Assembly (NCBI GenBank): GCA_945863205.1
Contig: CAMAZK010000017.1
Coordinates: 1 to 36,830 of the forward strand
Source: Akkermansia muciniphila
Lineage (GTDB): Bacteria > Verrucomicrobiota > Verrucomicrobiia > Verrucomicrobiales > Verrucomicrobiaceae
DNA length: 36,830 bases
Reading direction: 5' to 3'
The notes under the pieces: generated by a model
What the model saw: only the letters and a program-made list of their open reading frames with translations
Database searches by the model: none
What the model was told of the DNA's origin: nothing
Part shown: positions 1 to 8,592 of the stretch, piece by piece
Layout: the number at the start of each line of letters is the position of its first letter
Numbering within the stretch: position 1 is the stretch's first letter
Program-made: the position numbers and the translations under genes

Positions 1-169
1 GATCCGACAAGGTCGAAAAATCCGGCCTCTGACCATCACATTCCAGATGAGTCAGGACACGCAGGCTTTCAATGTTGGCGGCCACCATAACCATCCGCTG
101 CTGTTGATCGTGAATGTATTTTTCGAGGTTGGCGATTTTCGCCTGAATAGGAAGATTTTCGTTTTCCAT
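1..169 (-). CDS. Small coiled-coil-like hypothetical protein, truncated at window edge
   Basis: Reverse-strand reading from ATG at 169: MENENLPIQAKIANLEKYIHDQQQRMVMVAANIESLRVLTHLECDGQRPDFSTLSD..., open to the window edge; follows the coupling-protein gene on the same strand. Absent from the ORF track because it has no stop in the window. Confidence 0.6.
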   Translation of the reverse strand, partial: MENENLPIQAKIANLEKYIHDQQQRMVMVAANIESLRVLTHLECDGQRPDFSTLSD

Positions 170-227: not shown

Positions 228-1733
228 TCACTTCCACCAGTCCGGGATCTTCCCGGCGCCATCCATGGCGGGGATGCGCATTTTGATTTTGTTCTTCGAC
301 GGGTGGACGATCCAGGCGGTGGCGTCCGGCATTTTCATGAGCTCGCCGGGCTGCACTTCGTAGTCCCACTCCTTGTTCACGGTGGTGCTGCTGTTGGCCC
401 CCATGAAGCCGGAGGACTTGGATTTCTTCGTCTTCTCGACTTTGGCGATGAACTCGGCCACGGCCTGGGCACCTTCAGGGTCGGGCTGGCGGAAGGCGAT
501 GCGGGAGCGGCAGTTTAGGGTGAGCACCTGGGCGGTTTCTTTGCCGAGCACGGGGAACAAGGAAGCATCACTCTGCATGCCGAGGATAAGGCAGCAGTTC
601 GCGGCACGCAGGCGGTCGATGACGTTGTGGTCGGAAATGCCGTCCTCGCTGGCGGTGGCCAGGGCCTGAAACTCATCCATGAGGGCGATGAGCAGGTTTT
701 CTCCCTTGCGCTCGGACTTCGGCTTGTCGAAGCGCATCATCGCGTGCGTGTAGAAGAGCAGCTTGATGTAGGTGTTGATGTAGCGGCGCTCGGTCTGGAA
801 AGTCTGCGGCAGCGCGGTACAGAAGATGCGGCCTTTGTCAACGTCGGCGATGTCAATGGTGTTGGGCTCGTCCGAGCAGAAGACCTCGGCAATGTCCGGA
901 TGCGTGAAGAAGCCGAGCATGACCTTCAGCGTGCCGACGAGGCCTTCCTTCTGCTCGGCCGCCTTGGCGCTGAGGAAGGTCTGGTCAAAGTACTTTGCCA
1001 GCTTGATGCGCTCGGGCGTGCTGTCGGCATCCAGCAGTTCTTCAAAGATGGATTCCATCGCCGAGCTGTCCGTGAGGATCTCGTAGGCGCGCAGAACGTT
1101 CACCGGACGGCCCAGCGTCTCCAGCAGCTCAAAAGCACTGGTGAGCGCCTGTTGGGCGGCGGGTTTGAAGAAAGAGGACTGCTCCCCTTCGGTGAGGGAT
1201 GCGCCGGTATCGACCAGGTTCTTCGCATGCGTGGTGTAGGGGAGGCGGGGATCGGAAACGAGGTTGTAGCGCTCCTTCGGCTGCCACTTGCGGTCCAGCC
1301 GGTCCGGGCGCACCGCCAGCACGCAGATGGCCTCGGGCCGCCCATGCCCGGCGGCATGCTCCATGGCAAAGAAATGCTCGTCCCCCTTGGCACCGAGAAT
1401 CAGGCCGCCCCAGTTCGGACGCGAGACGGAGATCTGATGCAGCAGCGGATTGAAGCCCGAGGTCGTCTTGCCCACGCCGGTGTCTCCCGTGATCAGCCAG
1501 TGGCGCGTGAATTCCCCGGGCAGCCATTTGAGGTTCTTGTACTGCACGATGTAGTCCTTCTTGGAGAAATCCGGCTGCCACTTCAGCAGCACAAAAGCCC
1601 CCAGCACGCAGATAAAAGCCACCCCGCCGGTGACTTCGTTGATGCTGTCGTATTGAAACACATACCAAACGCCAAAGGTGGCGAGTCCGACGGCGAAGAG
1701 AAATTTGAGGAAGGAGAACATGACAGAAGACAT
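228..1733 (-). CDS. VirD4/TraD/TraG-like type IV coupling ATPase (TraM-recognition-type)
   Basis: N-terminal hydrophobic segments, Walker A ITGDTGVGKTTSG, Walker B-like LLIALMDEFQAL, RAANCCLILGMQSDASLFPVLGKETAQVLTLNCRSRIAFRQ typical of conjugative coupling proteins. Start chosen at MSSVMFSF (1733) or MFSFLKF (1721) rather than the ORF-track start at 1859. Confidence 0.75.
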   Translation of the reverse strand: MSSVMFSFLKFLFAVGLATFGVWYVFQYDSINEVTGGVAFICVLGAFVLLKWQPDFSKKDYIVQYKNLKWLPGEFTRHWLITGDTGVGKTTSGFNPLLHQISVSRPNWGGLILGAKGDEHFFAMEHAAGHGRPEAICVLAVRPDRLDRKWQPKERYNLVSDPRLPYTTHAKNLVDTGASLTEGEQSSFFKPAAQQALTSAFELLETLGRPVNVLRAYEILTDSSAMESIFEELLDADSTPERIKLAKYFDQTFLSAKAAEQKEGLVGTLKVMLGFFTHPDIAEVFCSDEPNTIDIADVDKGRIFCTALPQTFQTERRYINTYIKLLFYTHAMMRFDKPKSERKGENLLIALMDEFQALATASEDGISDHNVIDRLRAANCCLILGMQSDASLFPVLGKETAQVLTLNCRSRIAFRQPDPEGAQAVAEFIAKVEKTKKSKSSGFMGANSSTTVNKEWDYEVQPGELMKMPDATAWIVHPSKNKIKMRIPAMDGAGKIPDWWK

Positions 1734-1846
1734 CCCTGAGCGGAGGTGAGGAGTGATAGCCCGAATGTGCTCCGCTGTGACACATGTTCGATTGTTCGCG
1801 TCACACTGGGATCGTCCCTGGCTAGTTCCAGGTGAACTCTCACCCC

Positions 1847-4800
1847 ATGCCCCGCTCACTCACCTCCCAGCAACAAGGCAGCATCAGCCTGACAGAACTC
1901 GCTCAGACCATCAGCGACGACACCGGCGGCTTTCAGAACCATCTGGACAGGTCATTACGCCTGCCAGAGCGCAACGGGGGCACTGTGGAACTCAAGGTGC
2001 ATACTGAGCTCTTCAACAACCCGCTGACCGCAAAGGAAAACAGCCAGAACGCGGTTCAACTGGTCTATGACGCCCTCCATCGCGAGGTGGGGCAGCATGC
2101 CACCGAAGTGCTGTGGAACAGGAATCAGATGGAAAATGGGCGTGTGACAGTGGGACAAATCAAAGAGCTCCACAATTCGGTGCAGAATTTTCATCAAGCG
2201 CAGGCCGTGATTCGCGGACAGAGGAATGATTGGGACCAGCGTCGGCAGCAGAATGCCATGCCCCTGGCTGCACCCAGTCTGGATGCCCTGACGGCTGCCC
2301 CTGTGGCCCAGTTGAAAATATCAGATCAGGGGTCAGGCGGTGCCATCCTGACGCCGAGCGGAGTCGCCAAGGTGGAGCATTCCGCCATGGGCCGGGGAGC
2401 CTACGAGACAGCGCAGGTTGCCGCCGAGGCATTTGGCATGAACTCGCCCGACTGCCCGCTGCAGTTCACCCCCGTTGCGCTTTATACGGACCCCGCTTCC
2501 ATGCAGGCTGCGCATCAGGCGCTCACAAACTTCAAGGCCACTCCAGCAGGAGCGGGCAACGCATTGGTTGACCGGCATCTGGAAACCTTGGACCCTACCA
2601 GCCCGAACGCAGGTGACGCTGGCGTCAGCGTGGCCGCCCGGGTGGATGGACGCCCGCTGAACCGCCTGAAAATCGAAGAGAAGATCGCCCTTTTCCAAGG
2701 CGGGCAACTGGCAGCGGACATTGGCAAGGCCTCGGTGCTCTGCCCTGTGCTGGGTTTGAATGATCATGTAGGTCCCAATGCCAACGGAAAACTCGGCCCT
2801 GGATCCTTCGTGGGGGGGCAGCAGAACATTTCCAACCTGATGCTGGACAACCAGACCGGGCGCTTGGTGGCGATCGACTACGCCCCGACACCGAAGGGAG
2901 ACATCACTGCGCAGGGCATGTCCAATGGCTATGGTTCGGCCGGACCTGACAACGCTGTGGCGTCCCTGGCCTCCTTCGTCACCCGGGCGGCGGAGTCTCC
3001 CGAGGCCTACGAAAAAGCGGTGAATCAAATGCTGGCCAGGAACGGAAGCGTTTGTCCCCTGGCTGGCACGATGACGGCCTTTCTGATACCCGATGATGCC
3101 GATGGGGACCGCTATCTTTCGCATGAGGAAAAGCGGGCCTTTGATCTTCATGTCACTCCCGAGCAGCAGCGCGCGTTCGCAAAACAAATACTCAATGGAG
3201 CTGTCGAGGGGCTCTCGTATCTTCAGGAGCACCAGCAGGAACTGGCACATGCGGTAGAGAACAGTTCCCAGCGCTGCGGCATGACCGAGGGCTACCGGCG
3301 GAACTTCATCCAACCACAGGAGATGGCGAACCTGCATGTGGGTCTGGAGGGCATGAACTTCCCGCACCTGCGCGCCAACCTCGCGGCGGTGTCTCAGGGG
3401 CAAGTGGCCCCCAACGCATTACAGGTGCCGTCCTTTAAAGCGCCCAGTCTTTACTCTCTTGAGGTGTTGGCCGAGCAGGCGATGGAAGGAGCAGGCCTGA
3501 AGCCGCATCTGGATGGGTTCAATGCTGGCAACGGCTATGGACTGCACATCACTCCGGAGCAGATGATCACACGGGAGCTGAAGGCGAAGATTGAAGGCAA
3601 GGTGAAAAAGTCTTTGGATGAAGGCAGGACGGCGGACGCCTGCACCGAGGCGCGCGCCATGCTGGATGAGGCGATGAGGGGCAAGCTCGCCGTTGTGGAA
3701 AAAATCAACGCTCGTGCCGATGTCGGCGTTAACCGACCCTTCGCTCTCGAAGCCGCCCTCAAAAACGACTACGCCAGTCCCGAGGCCTTTGAGCGCTCCT
3801 ATTTCCGTGGCGCGGCGCCTGCGGAGGCGAAGGTGGAAAATGCTGTCGTCCAGCAGGTGGCCGCTGCTAACCCACCCATCGAAGCACGCGTTCCGCTGCA
3901 AAATCTGCCGCCGCCGTTGGATGGGGCGCCTTCCAAGGTGGCGAAGACAAACATTCCCGCCAAAACCGACGAAACCGGAGTGGCCTCTCAGCCCCCTGAG
4001 GTCACTCCGGCGGCACCACAGCTTCCACAGACGGCGATTGATCAGGCTGGGCCTGGCGTCCCCCCCCTGGCGGTGCAGGCCCTCGAAAATGATATCCGAA
4101 ATACCGAGGCTGCTCTGGCGATCATCGAAGCCCAGATCAAAGATCCCTCCAAGCGGTCCTACTCCAGCAATCAGTCTCCAGATGCGGACAACCTGCCGGA
4201 ACTCCAGCAGCGCCATGCCGAAAAGCAGCAGCAACTGCAAGCGCTGAGAACACAACTCGCGCAGCAGACTGTGGCCCCGACGCCGGAAGTGACGCCTGCT
4301 TCGATCCCAGTTTCCAGTTCCGGCTCGCTCTCTGCTCCAGCGCAGGATGCCGATCTCTCCGCGCCGCTGCCAGTGGATGAGGGGCCGGACCTTTCTGCCG
4401 CCAGTGACATGCGGTTTCCCTCGCCGCCAACCGACCCACCGCCCCCGCCACCGGACGACCAAGACGTGGCAGATCTGAACCAGGGCGCCGGTCTGTCTGT
4501 GCCGGCAGCGGCATCCCCGAGCCGTGTCACTCTCACGACTGACGCCATTGATCAAATGATCAAACAGGACTTCATGAAGCCTTCTGCCTGGTCCCCAGAG
4601 ACGGCGCAAAAACGCAACGCTCCTAACTACACGGAATCAGACAGTTACTCCAACACCAGCTCTGAGCGCCAAGAGTTCTCCAAACTCGACCGCCGTGCTG
4701 TGGAAATGCGCATGATCGAGACGCTGGAGATTCAGCCCCGTCAGGAGCACATCACCAAACTTGAGCAGCAGCTCGACGACTTGCATCAGACTTATGGGGC

Positions 4801-6664
4801 CGGTTCCACCCGGCCTGAGATCGCAGCCCTCAATGAAGAACTCGATCAGCTCTACGAAGAAGTGGATGTGTATGAGACTCGGGTGGCCGCCTTGCAGGAG
4901 TCTTTCAAGACCGACCTGCCTAAAGATCGCCTCGCCGCCATCAACCAAAAGCAGCAGGCCCTCAATGCATCGGTCGAACAAAAAATGAAGCAACCGGGCA
5001 TCCAGTTCGGCGGGGACGTGAAAACCAACGATGGAAACCCACGCCAGGAGCATGAACTGACCGTGAGTGCCGGGGCTGCGGCGAAAAGCTTCGTTGGCAA
5101 TGTGCCCGCAGGGGGTATCGCACCCGACAAACTGGCCGAGCAGATCAAGGAATCTTACAAGAAAGCTTACCAGTACGATGGGCCCGCCAGACTCGATGAT
5201 GATGGCAGGCAGCAGCGGGTGAAAGGGGCGAATGAGCGCAGGATTAGTCCTCAGGAGATAGACCGCGTCGCTGCTGAGATGAAGCCGACGATCGATCAGG
5301 TCAACGCTCTCCAACAGGAAATCCGTGTGCTTGAGACCAAGAGCCTTGATGACATTCAGCAGGAAATCGAGGCAGATCCCAGCCTCATCCCTGATGCGCA
5401 GACACGACAAAACCTCCAGCAGGCGCAGGCCAAGCTTCAGGCAGCCGAAACCACGCTCGGTGAATGCGAGGCGCAGCTCCAAGTGCTCAACACGCCCATT
5501 CCGGCGAAAGATCTCCTAGATCCCTCCCTGGAGGTTTTGGCCGCAGCCAACCAGGTGGAACAGGCCGTGCAAAAACATGGCAGTCTTGAACAGGCTCGGC
5601 AGCATTTTGGCAACGAAGCGGACAAGGCCAGGACCATGATGTTCGTGGCGGATGAGGCAAAAAACGTTCTTTTGGGAGAACGAGCCGTAGCCATCCAGCA
5701 ACAAAACCAAGCCGCTGTCGCTGATCTGAAGGCCCAGCAGGCCAAGCTCCTGCAGGACTTCCACGATCAAAAGCAGGCGCAGGCAGCCGCTATCAAGCCA
5801 GACCGTGCCCAGGGCGCATCCGTCGAGCTTGCGCAAGACAAGTTGGCGAAGGACCTCAGGCCTCTCGATGCGCAGATCGCCGCGCTCGACGCGGCCGAAA
5901 CAAAATTGCAGTCAGACGTGGCGGCCCTCGAAAAGCAGCACGCCGATCTGAAAAGTGCCAAAGTCAAAGAACTCGCTGAAAACCCGGATCTCATCGCCAA
6001 CGACGATCAGCTTCGCACACGCGAGGAGCTGGATCGTGCGCAAGCCAAGCAGGAGGCCGCCACCGCGCGGCTCGGTCATTGTGAAGATCAGCTAAAGAAA
6101 CTCGGATCCCCTGGTGTGGGGGACCGCATCAAAGCCGTGGCCCAGCATGGCGGCCTGCGGCAGGCCCGCGAGCACTACCAGAACGAAATCCAAAAGGCGG
6201 AGCAGGGCAAAGCGCTCGCTGGTCAGGAGATCGACCAGCTCCTCAGTCCGGTCGCTGACCGTGCGCTCGCGAATGACCCCGCCGCTGTCAAATTAGGCCA
6301 GGACATCCAGGTGCTCCGGCAGCAGGAGGCCCAGTTGCGCCTGCAAAACCTGTTTCCGCGGCAAGCCTTGGAGCAGCAGCGCACGGGCATCGAAGACAAG
6401 GCGCTTGCAGAAAACAAGGTGCGGACCCGGGACATGCTCAATCGTGAGCCTAGCAAAAGCGCCCTGTCGCAGGACCCGAAGAAAAACCAAGTCAATGCGG
6501 GAACCCAGCAAAACCAGGAGGAGCGTCAGGAACGCGATGAGCGCCTCAAAACAGTGGCCCCCAAGAAAGACACCGAAGGCCCTGGCAGCAATGCCCTCCG
6601 CAACACTTGGAAACGCACCGCCCCCAGCGTGTCGCAGGGCGGCGGCGTCAAGGTGCCTCAGTAA
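1847..6664 (+). CDS. Giant (~1605 aa) multidomain protein: atypical-kinase-like N-terminal region, EF-hand-like loop, Pro-rich linker, long coiled-coil C-terminus
   Basis: Single long ORF (1832 or 1847 start). GSGGAILTPSGVAKVEH, then LGLNDHVG...NISNLMLDNQTGRLVAIDYA; DADGDRYLSHEE; PPTDPPPPPPDD; extended Glu/Gln/Ala/Leu-rich heptad-like regions. Confidence 0.7.
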   Translation: MPRSLTSQQQGSISLTELAQTISDDTGGFQNHLDRSLRLPERNGGTVELKVHTELFNNPLTAKENSQNAVQLVYDALHREVGQHATEVLWNRNQMENGRVTVGQIKELHNSVQNFHQAQAVIRGQRNDWDQRRQQNAMPLAAPSLDALTAAPVAQLKISDQGSGGAILTPSGVAKVEHSAMGRGAYETAQVAAEAFGMNSPDCPLQFTPVALYTDPASMQAAHQALTNFKATPAGAGNALVDRHLETLDPTSPNAGDAGVSVAARVDGRPLNRLKIEEKIALFQGGQLAADIGKASVLCPVLGLNDHVGPNANGKLGPGSFVGGQQNISNLMLDNQTGRLVAIDYAPTPKGDITAQGMSNGYGSAGPDNAVASLASFVTRAAESPEAYEKAVNQMLARNGSVCPLAGTMTAFLIPDDADGDRYLSHEEKRAFDLHVTPEQQRAFAKQILNGAVEGLSYLQEHQQELAHAVENSSQRCGMTEGYRRNFIQPQEMANLHVGLEGMNFPHLRANLAAVSQGQVAPNALQVPSFKAPSLYSLEVLAEQAMEGAGLKPHLDGFNAGNGYGLHITPEQMITRELKAKIEGKVKKSLDEGRTADACTEARAMLDEAMRGKLAVVEKINARADVGVNRPFALEAALKNDYASPEAFERSYFRGAAPAEAKVENAVVQQVAAANPPIEARVPLQNLPPPLDGAPSKVAKTNIPAKTDETGVASQPPEVTPAAPQLPQTAIDQAGPGVPPLAVQALENDIRNTEAALAIIEAQIKDPSKRSYSSNQSPDADNLPELQQRHAEKQQQLQALRTQLAQQTVAPTPEVTPASIPVSSSGSLSAPAQDADLSAPLPVDEGPDLSAASDMRFPSPPTDPPPPPPDDQDVADLNQGAGLSVPAAASPSRVTLTTDAIDQMIKQDFMKPSAWSPETAQKRNAPNYTESDSYSNTSSERQEFSKLDRRAVEMRMIETLEIQPRQEHITKLEQQLDDLHQTYGAGSTRPEIAALNEELDQLYEEVDVYETRVAALQESFKTDLPKDRLAAINQKQQALNASVEQKMKQPGIQFGGDVKTNDGNPRQEHELTVSAGAAAKSFVGNVPAGGIAPDKLAEQIKESYKKAYQYDGPARLDDDGRQQRVKGANERRISPQEIDRVAAEMKPTIDQVNALQQEIRVLETKSLDDIQQEIEADPSLIPDAQTRQNLQQAQAKLQAAETTLGECEAQLQVLNTPIPAKDLLDPSLEVLAAANQVEQAVQKHGSLEQARQHFGNEADKARTMMFVADEAKNVLLGERAVAIQQQNQAAVADLKAQQAKLLQDFHDQKQAQAAAIKPDRAQGASVELAQDKLAKDLRPLDAQIAALDAAETKLQSDVAALEKQHADLKSAKVKELAENPDLIANDDQLRTREELDRAQAKQEAATARLGHCEDQLKKLGSPGVGDRIKAVAQHGGLRQAREHYQNEIQKAEQGKALAGQEIDQLLSPVADRALANDPAAVKLGQDIQVLRQQEAQLRLQNLFPRQALEQQRTGIEDKALAENKVRTRDMLNREPSKSALSQDPKKNQVNAGTQQNQEERQERDERLKTVAPKKDTEGPGSNALRNTWKRTAPSVSQGGGVKVPQ

Positions 6665-6738: not shown

Positions 6739-8592
6739 ATGGACACCACACCTTCTCTTCATCCTGCAGATGATTTTGACCAAACGATCAAAGTGCGCAC
6801 CCCCCAGGCCGGGGCGATGTACTTCAATCGCTACAAGCTCACGCGCATCCTCGGACGCGGCGGCATGGGGGTCGTCTGGCTCGCGGATGACTTGAAGCTG
6901 GAGCGGCCCGTGGCGCTGAAGTTTCTGCCAAGCCTGATCGGACTCGATCCCTCGGCGGTCAAGGAACTCAAGACGGAGACGCGCCGCGGACTGGAGCTTT
7001 CGCATCCCAACATCGTCCGCATTTATGACTTCGTGGACGACGAGGATGTGGCGGCCATCTCGATGGAGTTTGTCAATGCGCGGACTCTCTCCGAACTGAA
7101 GACGGAAACCGAGACCGGCGTCTTTACCGCCGACCAGGTGGCCAAATGGCTGCCGGGCGTCTGCGAGGCGCTCGATTACGCGCATTTCCAATGCAAGGTC
7201 GTCCACCGCGACCTGAAGCCCTCGAACATCATGGCCAACCTCGGCGATGACAAAGCGAAGATCGCCGACTTCGGCATCGCCCGCAGCATCTCGGACACAA
7301 TGAGCCGCCTGTCGGTCTCGCAGCTCGGCGTCAGTGGCACCCTGCCCTACATGAGCCCCCAGCAGGCGATGGGGGAGAAGCCCGCGCCCACGGATGACGT
7401 GTACTCCCTCGGGGCCACCATTTACGAGCTGCTCTCCGGCAAACCGCCTTTTTTCCGTGGAGACATCCCCTCCCAGATCACTTCGAAGATCCCGCCCAGC
7501 ATGTTCGAGCGGCGGGAGGAGCTGGAGATCAAGGCGGAGGACTCCATTCCGAAGGAGTGGGAGGCCGTCATCGCCGCCTGCCTGCAAAAGGATCCAACGC
7601 TGCGGCCGCCAAGCGCCGGCAAGCTGCTGGAGCTGCTCGGCCTGAAGGGCGGCACCAGCGCCTACACCAAGACCTTCGTCATGCCGGGCGCCGCCGCCCC
7701 GCCCGCCGCCAAGAGCGAAGCCAGGAGCCGGATGCCGATCTACGCGGCGGCGGCGGTCGCCGTCGTTGCCGCAGGCTCGGCTTTTTACTTCAAATCGACC
7801 ACACCCGCACCGACCGCTGCGGTGCCGCCCTCCGGCGCTGCGCCGGTGGTCGCCGTGCCGACGGAGGTCGTCACCGCTCCTGCCCCGACCCCGGCGACAC
7901 CAGAGCCTGCTGCAGCAGCGCCCGTTTTGATGCCCGCCGCGACCGGCGGGGAAGCGCCACCGGCCACGGTGACTGCGGCGGCACCTGAATCCGTTCCGAC
8001 ACCGGCTGCACCGGTGCCTGCTCCCGTCATGGTCGCCGCCGCGCCCCCGGAAGCGTTGCCCACACCCGCGATCCCGACGACCGGTGCCATGCCGCTCACC
8101 TTGGAAGGAGCGGCACTTACACAGCCCCCGCCCGCTTCCGCTGATGCGCCGCTGGTTGGCGGCCTTCCCCCGGCGGCCATGATCCAGCCTCCAGTTTCAG
8201 AGCCTCCGAATGGTCACTGGCCCATCGCCATGCTCTTTCCCACCCCGCCGCACGCCTCGTACTCGGAAAACGGCCGCCGCCGCCTGCTTTATGAGGTCCA
8301 GGGCCTGCTGAAGAAACAGAGCCTCTACACCTCGACCCAGGACGGCAAGGAGGGAAAGGGCACTCACAACGCGATCATCCTCTTCCAGGCCAAAAACGGC
8401 CTGGTACCCAACGGTCTGCTCGACGGTCCGACGCTCACGGCCATGTCCCTCGCCACAGAAACCGACGTTGCCGATTGGAGGTCCCCCGCCGCAGCGGGGG
8501 CGTACTCCGGCAGGAGGGCGGTGATCAAGGAAGAACCCAACATGCTTCAGCGTGCTGGCCAGTCCATCGGGCGCCTTTTCAAACGGGACTGA
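6739..8592 (+). CDS. Ser/Thr protein kinase with single TM segment, Pro/Ala-rich linker and C-terminal peptidoglycan-binding-like domain
   Basis: GRGGMGVVWLADDLKLERPVALKFL, HRDLKPSNIM, DFGIARS, PYMSPQQ; TM-like YAAAAVAVVAAGSAFYF; C-term LLYEVQGLLKKQSLYT...GTHNAIILFQAKNGLVPNGLLDGPTLTAM resembles PG_binding_1. Confidence 0.9.
   Translation: MDTTPSLHPADDFDQTIKVRTPQAGAMYFNRYKLTRILGRGGMGVVWLADDLKLERPVALKFLPSLIGLDPSAVKELKTETRRGLELSHPNIVRIYDFVDDEDVAAISMEFVNARTLSELKTETETGVFTADQVAKWLPGVCEALDYAHFQCKVVHRDLKPSNIMANLGDDKAKIADFGIARSISDTMSRLSVSQLGVSGTLPYMSPQQAMGEKPAPTDDVYSLGATIYELLSGKPPFFRGDIPSQITSKIPPSMFERREELEIKAEDSIPKEWEAVIAACLQKDPTLRPPSAGKLLELLGLKGGTSAYTKTFVMPGAAAPPAAKSEARSRMPIYAAAAVAVVAAGSAFYFKSTTPAPTAAVPPSGAAPVVAVPTEVVTAPAPTPATPEPAAAAPVLMPAATGGEAPPATVTAAAPESVPTPAAPVPAPVMVAAAPPEALPTPAIPTTGAMPLTLEGAALTQPPPASADAPLVGGLPPAAMIQPPVSEPPNGHWPIAMLFPTPPHASYSENGRRRLLYEVQGLLKKQSLYTSTQDGKEGKGTHNAIILFQAKNGLVPNGLLDGPTLTAMSLATETDVADWRSPAAAGAYSGRRAVIKEEPNMLQRAGQSIGRLFKRD

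What the first reader, a model, noticed from the sequence alone, without database searches (positions are those of the whole stretch)
2324..2884. Atypical kinase-like catalytic signature at the N-terminus of a giant uncharacterised protein
Seen: GSGGAILTPSGVAKVEH (Gly-rich turn then candidate Lys, codon 2369-2371), AYETAQVAAEAFGMNSP, then LGLNDHVG...NISNLMLDNQTGRLVAIDYA. The order resembles actin-fragmin-kinase/PI3-4K/HipA-like folds (Gly turn, Lys, D-x-x-x-x-N loop, ID[FY/x] metal site). Inference: this could be a protein or lipid kinase, AMPylator-like enzyme or pseudokinase. Its adjacency to a type IV coupling ATPase makes a secreted-effector or plasmid/ICE-linked toxin role a testable idea.
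Basis: partly seen in the sequence, partly recalled or inferred. Interest (0 to 1): 0.75.

Follow-up and report, generated by a model that had tools for sequence, protein, structure and literature searches.

The report
Secretion-linked kinase-like giant bacterial protein
A bacterium of the family Verrucomicrobiaceae carries a giant protein whose front end is a previously unclassified kinase-like domain most similar to slime-mould actin-fragmin kinase, and whose gene position and tail suggest it is fed into a type IV secretion machine, probably to act inside another cell.

Summary
The Lys is at codon 2369-2371 (K180), followed by D311-H312, N332/N335 and I348-D349. In an 11-member family, 20-29% identical outside one close ortholog, the Gly pair, Lys, Asp-His, both Asn and Ile-Asp are all invariant.

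The kinase interpretation is supported. No Pfam or NCBIfam model recognises the domain. A family profile finds actin-fragmin kinase (1cja) in PDB sequences at E=0.002, with D/N/N/ID aligned. Two AlphaFold models, of the window domain and of a homolog, both have 1cja as the clear best Foldseek hit, at E=1.9e-4 and 2.2e-6.

In a close relative the gene lies on the same contig as a VirB/VirD4-like T4SS. Nine of ten carriers have this T4SS, against 15 of 58 non-carriers. A second T4SS-restricted family with a PI3/PI4-kinase signature (20 of 20 carriers T4SS+) shares a C-terminal tail with the close ortholog (E=1e-13). A third unrelated protein has the same tail.

Best reading: a T4SS substrate with an active atypical kinase domain. 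Activity, translocation and target are untested.

The parts
1847..6664 (+). giant protein gene (1605 aa from ATG 1847; open frame from GTG 1832, 1610 aa)
   Evidence: open frame; start chosen by 'MP' N-termini of homologs
2270..3370 (+). AFK/PI4K-like kinase domain, residues 147-513
   Evidence: 11-member family alignment; PDB profile hit 1cja E=0.002; Foldseek of two AlphaFold models to 1cja E=1.9e-4 and 2.2e-6
2327..2380 (+). Gly-rich turn and candidate ATP Lys (GSGGAILTPSGVAKVEH; G167, G170, K180 invariant)
   Evidence: K180 lies on a predicted N-lobe strand
2762..2836 (+). catalytic loop: D311-H312 ... N332, N335
   Evidence: invariant in 11 of 11; aligned to the AFK Asp and Asn positions
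2873..2878 (+). I348-D349, predicted metal-binding Asp (DFG-Asp equivalent)
   Evidence: invariant; aligned to AFK 'ID'
3371..6360 (+). long Pro/Gln-rich and coiled-coil-like body
   Evidence: no family match apart from weak coiled-coil-type hits; the C-terminal half aligns to the G026 ortholog at 28%
6420..6661 (+). candidate C-terminal secretion signal (VRTRDML ... SNALRNTWKRTAPSVSQGGGVKVPQ)
   Evidence: the ortholog's tail matches tails of a second T4SS-linked family at E=1e-13 to 3e-9; the window's own tail matches only weakly (E=0.15-1.6) but in register; tails are basic in an otherwise acidic protein set
228..1733 (-). type IV coupling protein (VirD4/TraD-like), divergently transcribed
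   Evidence: TrwB_AAD_bind E=1.6e-14, TraG-D_C E=7.5e-8; 92% identical neighbour in G026; start inferred from MSSVMFSFLK
6739..8592 (+). ordinary Hanks-type Ser/Thr kinase with a peptidoglycan-binding domain, conserved neighbour
   Evidence: Pkinase E=9e-46, PG_binding_1 E=3.8e-8; kinase part 73% identical at the same position in G026

Best explanation
The giant protein is a substrate (effector) of the bacterium's own chromosomal VirB/VirD4-like type IV secretion system. Its N-terminal domain (residues about 147-513) has the atypical protein-kinase-like fold of the actin-fragmin kinase/PI3-4-kinase branch. The Gly-rich turn and K180 hold ATP, D311 is the catalytic Asp, and N335 (with N332) and D349 bind the metal. 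The basic C-terminal tail is read by the adjacent coupling ATPase, the protein is passed to another cell, and the domain phosphorylates a protein or lipid there, most plausibly in a protist. Supported by computation here: family, fold, active-site conservation, T4SS linkage, shared tail. Inferred: catalysis, translocation, substrate, recipient.
For: Invariant G/G/K/DH/N/N/ID in 11 homologs, most at 20-29% identity. PDB profile search: 1cja E=0.002 with catalytic residues aligned. Two AlphaFold models (pTM 0.76 and 0.79): 1cja is the only hit with E<=0.001 in both, and PI4KIIIb is second for the window model. Adjacent coupling ATPase. In relative G026, T4CP, giant gene and Ser/Thr kinase keep the same order, on the same contig as VirB10 and VirB4-like genes. 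9/10 carriers have the T4SS versus 15/58 non-carriers, Fisher p=2e-4. A second family with a PI3_PI4_kinase match in 12/12 members occurs in 20 genomes, all T4SS+. The G026 ortholog's C-terminal tail matches four of its members at E=1e-13 to 3e-9, at the extreme C-terminus. An unrelated 1239-aa protein carries the same tail. The last 30 residues average +2.4 net charge versus -0.8 for random segments, 0 of 20,000 draws as high.
Against: The window protein's own tail matches the shared tail only weakly (E about 0.15-1.6), although its ortholog (91% identical domain) matches strongly. Several family members have divergent tails, and two short ones (L023, L024) have none. Most homologs are encoded away from the T4SS locus. 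G008, 90% complete, has two members but no T4SS marker. AlphaFold confidence is moderate (pLDDT 67-72, four-sequence alignments) and Foldseek TM-scores are low (0.37-0.54). Related genomes are not independent in the co-occurrence test. No enzyme activity or secretion was measured.
Confidence: 0.62

Rival explanations
1. The domain has the kinase-like fold but a different chemistry (AMPylation as in SelO, glutamylation as in SidJ) or is a pseudokinase scaffold, still as a secreted protein.
For: A kinase-like fold does glutamylation in SidJ (PMC6858067, abstract), and SelO has a kinase-like domain (PMC3281104; its AMPylation activity is from my own knowledge); the residue after the catalytic Asp is His, not Arg.
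Against: All expected ATP/metal positions are invariant, which argues against a dead scaffold; the closest fold hit is a bona fide protein kinase. SelO and SidJ structures were not among the 50 Foldseek hits listed.
Confidence: 0.2
2. The protein stays inside the bacterium as a regulator or structural partner of the secretion machine; the kinase domain phosphorylates secretion components.
For: Gene order T4CP-giant-Ser/Thr kinase is conserved in two species; long coiled-coil-like body.
Against: Only 9 of 24 T4SS-bearing genomes have the domain, so the machine does not need it; most homologs lie elsewhere in the genome; the C-terminal tail is shared with proteins of different body.
Confidence: 0.17
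3. It is a polyvalent-type protein of a conjugative element or prophage, co-transferred with DNA.
For: Large proteins with kinase domains are described in Verrucomicrobium spinosum polyvalent loci (PMC5512222); a coupling ATPase is adjacent.
Against: No PF03432 relaxase in any carrier genome; no plasmid or viral-contig match; no PHROG match for the domain; no Kinase-PolyVal match in Pfam, and a helical C-lobe is predicted, whereas that family lost its C-lobe. Other relaxase families were not searched.
Confidence: 0.08
4. It is a secreted weapon aimed at other bacteria rather than at eukaryotes (an alternative about the recipient only, so it overlaps the best explanation).
For: Some VirB/VirD4 systems kill bacteria (Xanthomonas type; from my own knowledge).
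Against: No conserved small immunity-like gene was seen beside the family members, although this was not searched systematically; AFK/PI4K-type kinases act on eukaryotic targets in known cases.
Confidence: 0.3

Closest known systems
Actin-fragmin kinase (AFK, Physarum; 1cja; Pfam PF09192)
   Same: Best fold hit of two models and only credible PDB sequence hit; same D...long loop...N-x-x-N...ID layout and an upstream 'L/VMEx..G..LNKL' stretch.
   Different: 13-14% identity; below the Pfam cut-off (best single member E=0.17); bacterial; part of a giant protein; no kelch repeats found.
PI3/PI4-kinase catalytic domain (PF00454)
   Same: Same superfamily; PI4KIIIb is the second hit for the window model; D..N..ID logic.
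   Different: No PF00454 match for this family; DH with an insert instead of DRHxxN. The neighbouring second family, not this one, matches PF00454.
Legionella T4SS effector PI kinases LepB, AnkK, MavQ and other atypical effector kinases (PMC9758233)
   Same: Atypical kinase-like proteins delivered by a T4SS; functional analogy.
   Different: Different phylum and T4SS type (Dot/Icm); no actin-fragmin-kinase family is named in that survey's main text; delivery is experimental there, inferred here.
Kinase-PolyVal domains of polyvalent proteins (PMC5512222)
   Same: Kinase domains in very large proteins of Verrucomicrobia.
   Different: Those are truncated Ser/Thr kinases, mainly of (pro)phages, lacking the C-lobe and with an insert between His and Asp; ours keeps a helical C-lobe and gives no such Pfam match.
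VirB/VirD4 effectors with C-terminal basic tails (general T4SS knowledge)
   Same: Hydrophilic, basic C-terminal tail shared by unrelated bodies, coupling ATPase next door.
   Different: The tail sequence (SVAEMLKR ... LRASGSWQSAKPSGPKPGG) is not a signal known to me; recognition is untested.

Membership tests
Actin-fragmin kinase (AFK) fold branch | structure match to the AFK catalytic domain | tested here: met
   Foldseek 1cja rank 1, prob 1.00, E=1.9e-4 and 2.2e-6; TM only 0.37-0.54
Actin-fragmin kinase (AFK) fold branch | catalytic Asp, metal-binding Asn and Asp in register | tested here: met
   HMMER alignment of the family profile with 1cja; invariant in 11 of 11
Actin-fragmin kinase family PF09192 (narrow sense) | score above the Pfam gathering cut-off | tested here: not met
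   No PF09192 hit for the window protein; one family member at E=0.17
Actin-fragmin kinase family PF09192 (narrow sense) | phosphorylates actin of the actin-fragmin complex | not testable with these tools
   needs an in vitro kinase assay
PI3/PI4 kinase PF00454 | Pfam match and DRHxxN signature | tested here: not met
   No PF00454 hit in any of 11 members; loop is DH-x(n)-N-x-x-N
HipA | Pfam HipA match or HipA fold as nearest | tested here: not met
   No HipA hit in Pfam or among the listed Foldseek matches
Kinase-PolyVal (polyvalent proteins) | Pfam match; loss of C-lobe | tested here: not met
   No such match; helical C-lobe predicted
T4SS (VirB/VirD4) effector | gene adjacent to or co-occurring with a T4SS | tested here: met
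   T4CP adjacent; T4SS on the same contig in G026; 9/10 vs 15/58
T4SS (VirB/VirD4) effector | C-terminal translocation signal | tested here: inconclusive
   Shared basic tail in the ortholog and second family, weak in the window protein itself
T4SS (VirB/VirD4) effector | T4SS-dependent translocation | not testable with these tools
   needs a reporter assay
Conjugative element / ICE cargo | relaxase present with the T4SS | tested here: not met
   PF03432 absent in all carriers; other relaxase families not tested

The most novel reading that the evidence does not exclude
Verrucomicrobiaceae carry a previously undescribed, non-conjugative VirB/VirD4-like secretion system whose cargo includes at least two families of actin-fragmin/PI3-4-kinase-like enzymes plus other giant proteins, all marked by a common C-terminal tail, and used against or inside protists.
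Probability: 0.4. Interest if true: 0.8.

Novelty: new variant of a known kind. Interest (0 to 1): 0.66.

Why it matters
Actin-fragmin kinase is known essentially from slime mould and a few other eukaryotes (own knowledge). A bacterial family with its catalytic layout, tied to a secretion machine, would be a new class of candidate effector kinase and a lead on how environmental Verrucomicrobia deal with other cells. The shared C-terminal tail is a direct handle for finding the rest of this system's cargo, and the invariant residues give simple test mutants.

Tried and rejected
Pfam, NCBIfam, PHROGs and PADLOC gave no match for the kinase domain; the DUF6187, LmuB and phrog_3149 hits fall in the coiled-coil-like body and look like composition matches. 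A single-sequence PDB search gave only a cobalamin adenosyltransferase at E about 1, chance. Relatives were sought in plasmids and viral contigs: none. Outside the GTDB family none was found in the phylum or order samples (388 and 387 genomes). A VirB4 search with PF03135 found nothing, but the P-loop_TraG model identifies the VirB4-like gene. Profile-profile comparison of the two kinase-like families aligns the N...ID part but is weak (prob 53, E=1.4e-4). One family hit, G057/L025, is a Wzc-like exopolysaccharide tyrosine kinase hit by chance and was dropped. The viral fold library gave only weak kinase hits, including an orpheovirus AFK-domain protein at E=0.76. Whether the frame at window 1-169 (-) is the start of the second kinase-like gene could not be settled (E=0.03).

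Full report
What is there. Window 1832-6664 (+) encodes a 1610-aa open frame (1605 aa from the likelier ATG at 1847). The candidate lysine is K180, codon 2369-2371, as stated; D311, H312, N332, N335 and D349 follow. Neither Pfam nor NCBIfam recognises the domain.

Homologs. A search of 68 genomes of the same GTDB family found ten genomes with the domain, in three genera (repeat it with a profile). G026 has a near ortholog (91% identical domain; protein 2777 aa). The other nine proteins are 416-681 aa, with the domain making up most of the front half. Public records of three of the loci are titled Verrucomicrobiaceae. No member was found outside this GTDB family in samples of 388 phylum and 387 order genomes, in plasmids or in viral contigs. 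In the alignment only 16 positions are invariant, and they include the residues a kinase needs: G167, G170, K180, D311, H312, N332, N335, I348, D349.

Fold. A profile of the family against PDB sequences returns actin-fragmin kinase 1cja at E=0.002, next hit E=0.14. The alignment puts the family's D-H, N..N and I-D on AFK D-R, N..N and I-D, and both have a long loop between D and N, unlike the DRHxxN of PI3/PI4 kinases. AlphaFold models of the window domain (pLDDT 67, pTM 0.76) and of the homolog L030 (pLDDT 72, pTM 0.79) both give 1cja as the only PDB hit at E<=0.001, prob 1.00; PI4KIIIb is second for the window model (prob 0.99). The two models share the same four sequences, so they are not fully independent. 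TM-scores are low (0.37-0.54), so the claim is 'same fold branch', not 'same enzyme'.

Secretion context. Divergent from the giant gene is a VirD4/TraD-type coupling ATPase. In G026 the same three genes (T4CP, giant, Ser/Thr kinase) keep their order, and the contig also holds VirB10/TrbI and a VirB4-like ATPase, with other membrane-protein and lipoprotein genes of T4SS type between them (by appearance only). The VirB4-like gene matches P-loop_TraG in relatives. The window genome has its own VirB10 (G000:C140) and VirB4-like (G000:C9) genes on other contigs. The VirB4-like gene occurs at 76-100% identity in 24 of 68 genomes; 9 of 10 carriers of the kinase-like domain have it versus 15 of 58 others (Fisher p=2e-4; related genomes are not independent). 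No PF03432 relaxase is in any carrier, and in the single-contig genome G061 no obvious relaxase was seen among the ORFs near its T4SS (partly checked by Pfam), so a conjugative role is not favoured.

A second kinase-like family. Between a cNMP-binding-like gene and the T4CP, G026 encodes a 1415-aa protein with 'QIDRHSGNIFVDPHTGQVSGIDND'. All 12 aligned members match PI3_PI4_kinase (best E=1.5e-8). It is found in 20 of 68 genomes and all 20 have the T4SS. The window genome has a member on C140. In G014 one lies about 3 kb from a member of our family.

Shared tail. The last 60 or so residues of the G026 giant match the last 60 or so residues of four second-family proteins at E=1e-13 to 3e-9, although their bodies differ. 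A profile of the tail finds seven clear matches (E<=1.8e-11), all in T4SS+ genomes; five are the proteins it was built from or their copies, one is a gene fragment in G021 and one is an unrelated 1239-aa protein in G019. Across 33 proteins the last 30 residues are basic (+2.4) in generally acidic proteins (0 of 20,000 random draws as high), and a VRD-x-L/M-like motif is five times denser in tails than in bodies; the motif test is post hoc. The window's own tail aligns in register (SNALRNTWKRTAPSVSQGGG) but only at E 0.15-1.6. This is what a shared T4SS C-terminal signal would look like; it is not proof of secretion.

Judgement. Kinase-like fold about 0.9; catalytically active about 0.7; T4SS substrate about 0.7; eukaryotic target about 0.45 (estimates, not computed). 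The papers searched name no such family: a Legionella pan-kinome survey lists other atypical effector kinases (PMC9758233), the Verrucomicrobia polyvalent kinases (PMC5512222) are a different, truncated type, and no paper on a T4SS of this kind in Verrucomicrobiaceae was found in the held library.

Noticed in passing
L047 8632-12879 (-) in G026; G000:C140 (L049 9605-11323, -): Second giant protein family with a PI3_PI4_kinase signature, found only in T4SS-bearing genomes (20 of 20 carriers); sits beside the coupling ATPase in G026.
   Followed up: partly
L015 protein residues about 669-2010 versus window about 3840-4350: The G026 ortholog (2777 aa) has over 1000 residues in the middle that the window protein lacks; no Pfam match. 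Suggests swapping or loss of a central module.
   Followed up: no
L122 5616-9332 (-), G019: 1239-aa protein of unknown fold ending in the same C-terminal tail; no Pfam match; has a GDDTD stretch.
   Followed up: no
L052 7397-8293 (-) and L049 6585-7481 (+): ClpB/AAA_2-like ATPase close beside VirB10 in the T4SS locus (Pfam for L052); no VirB11 was seen.
   Followed up: no
window 6739-8592 (+); L052 3517-5652: Hanks-type Ser/Thr kinase with a peptidoglycan-binding domain next to the giant gene; a kinase with a similar N-terminus lies inside the G014 T4SS locus.
   Followed up: no
window 1-169 (-): Open frame MENENLPIQAK... running off the window end behind the coupling ATPase; weakly like the N-terminus of the second kinase-like family (E=0.03).
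   Followed up: partly
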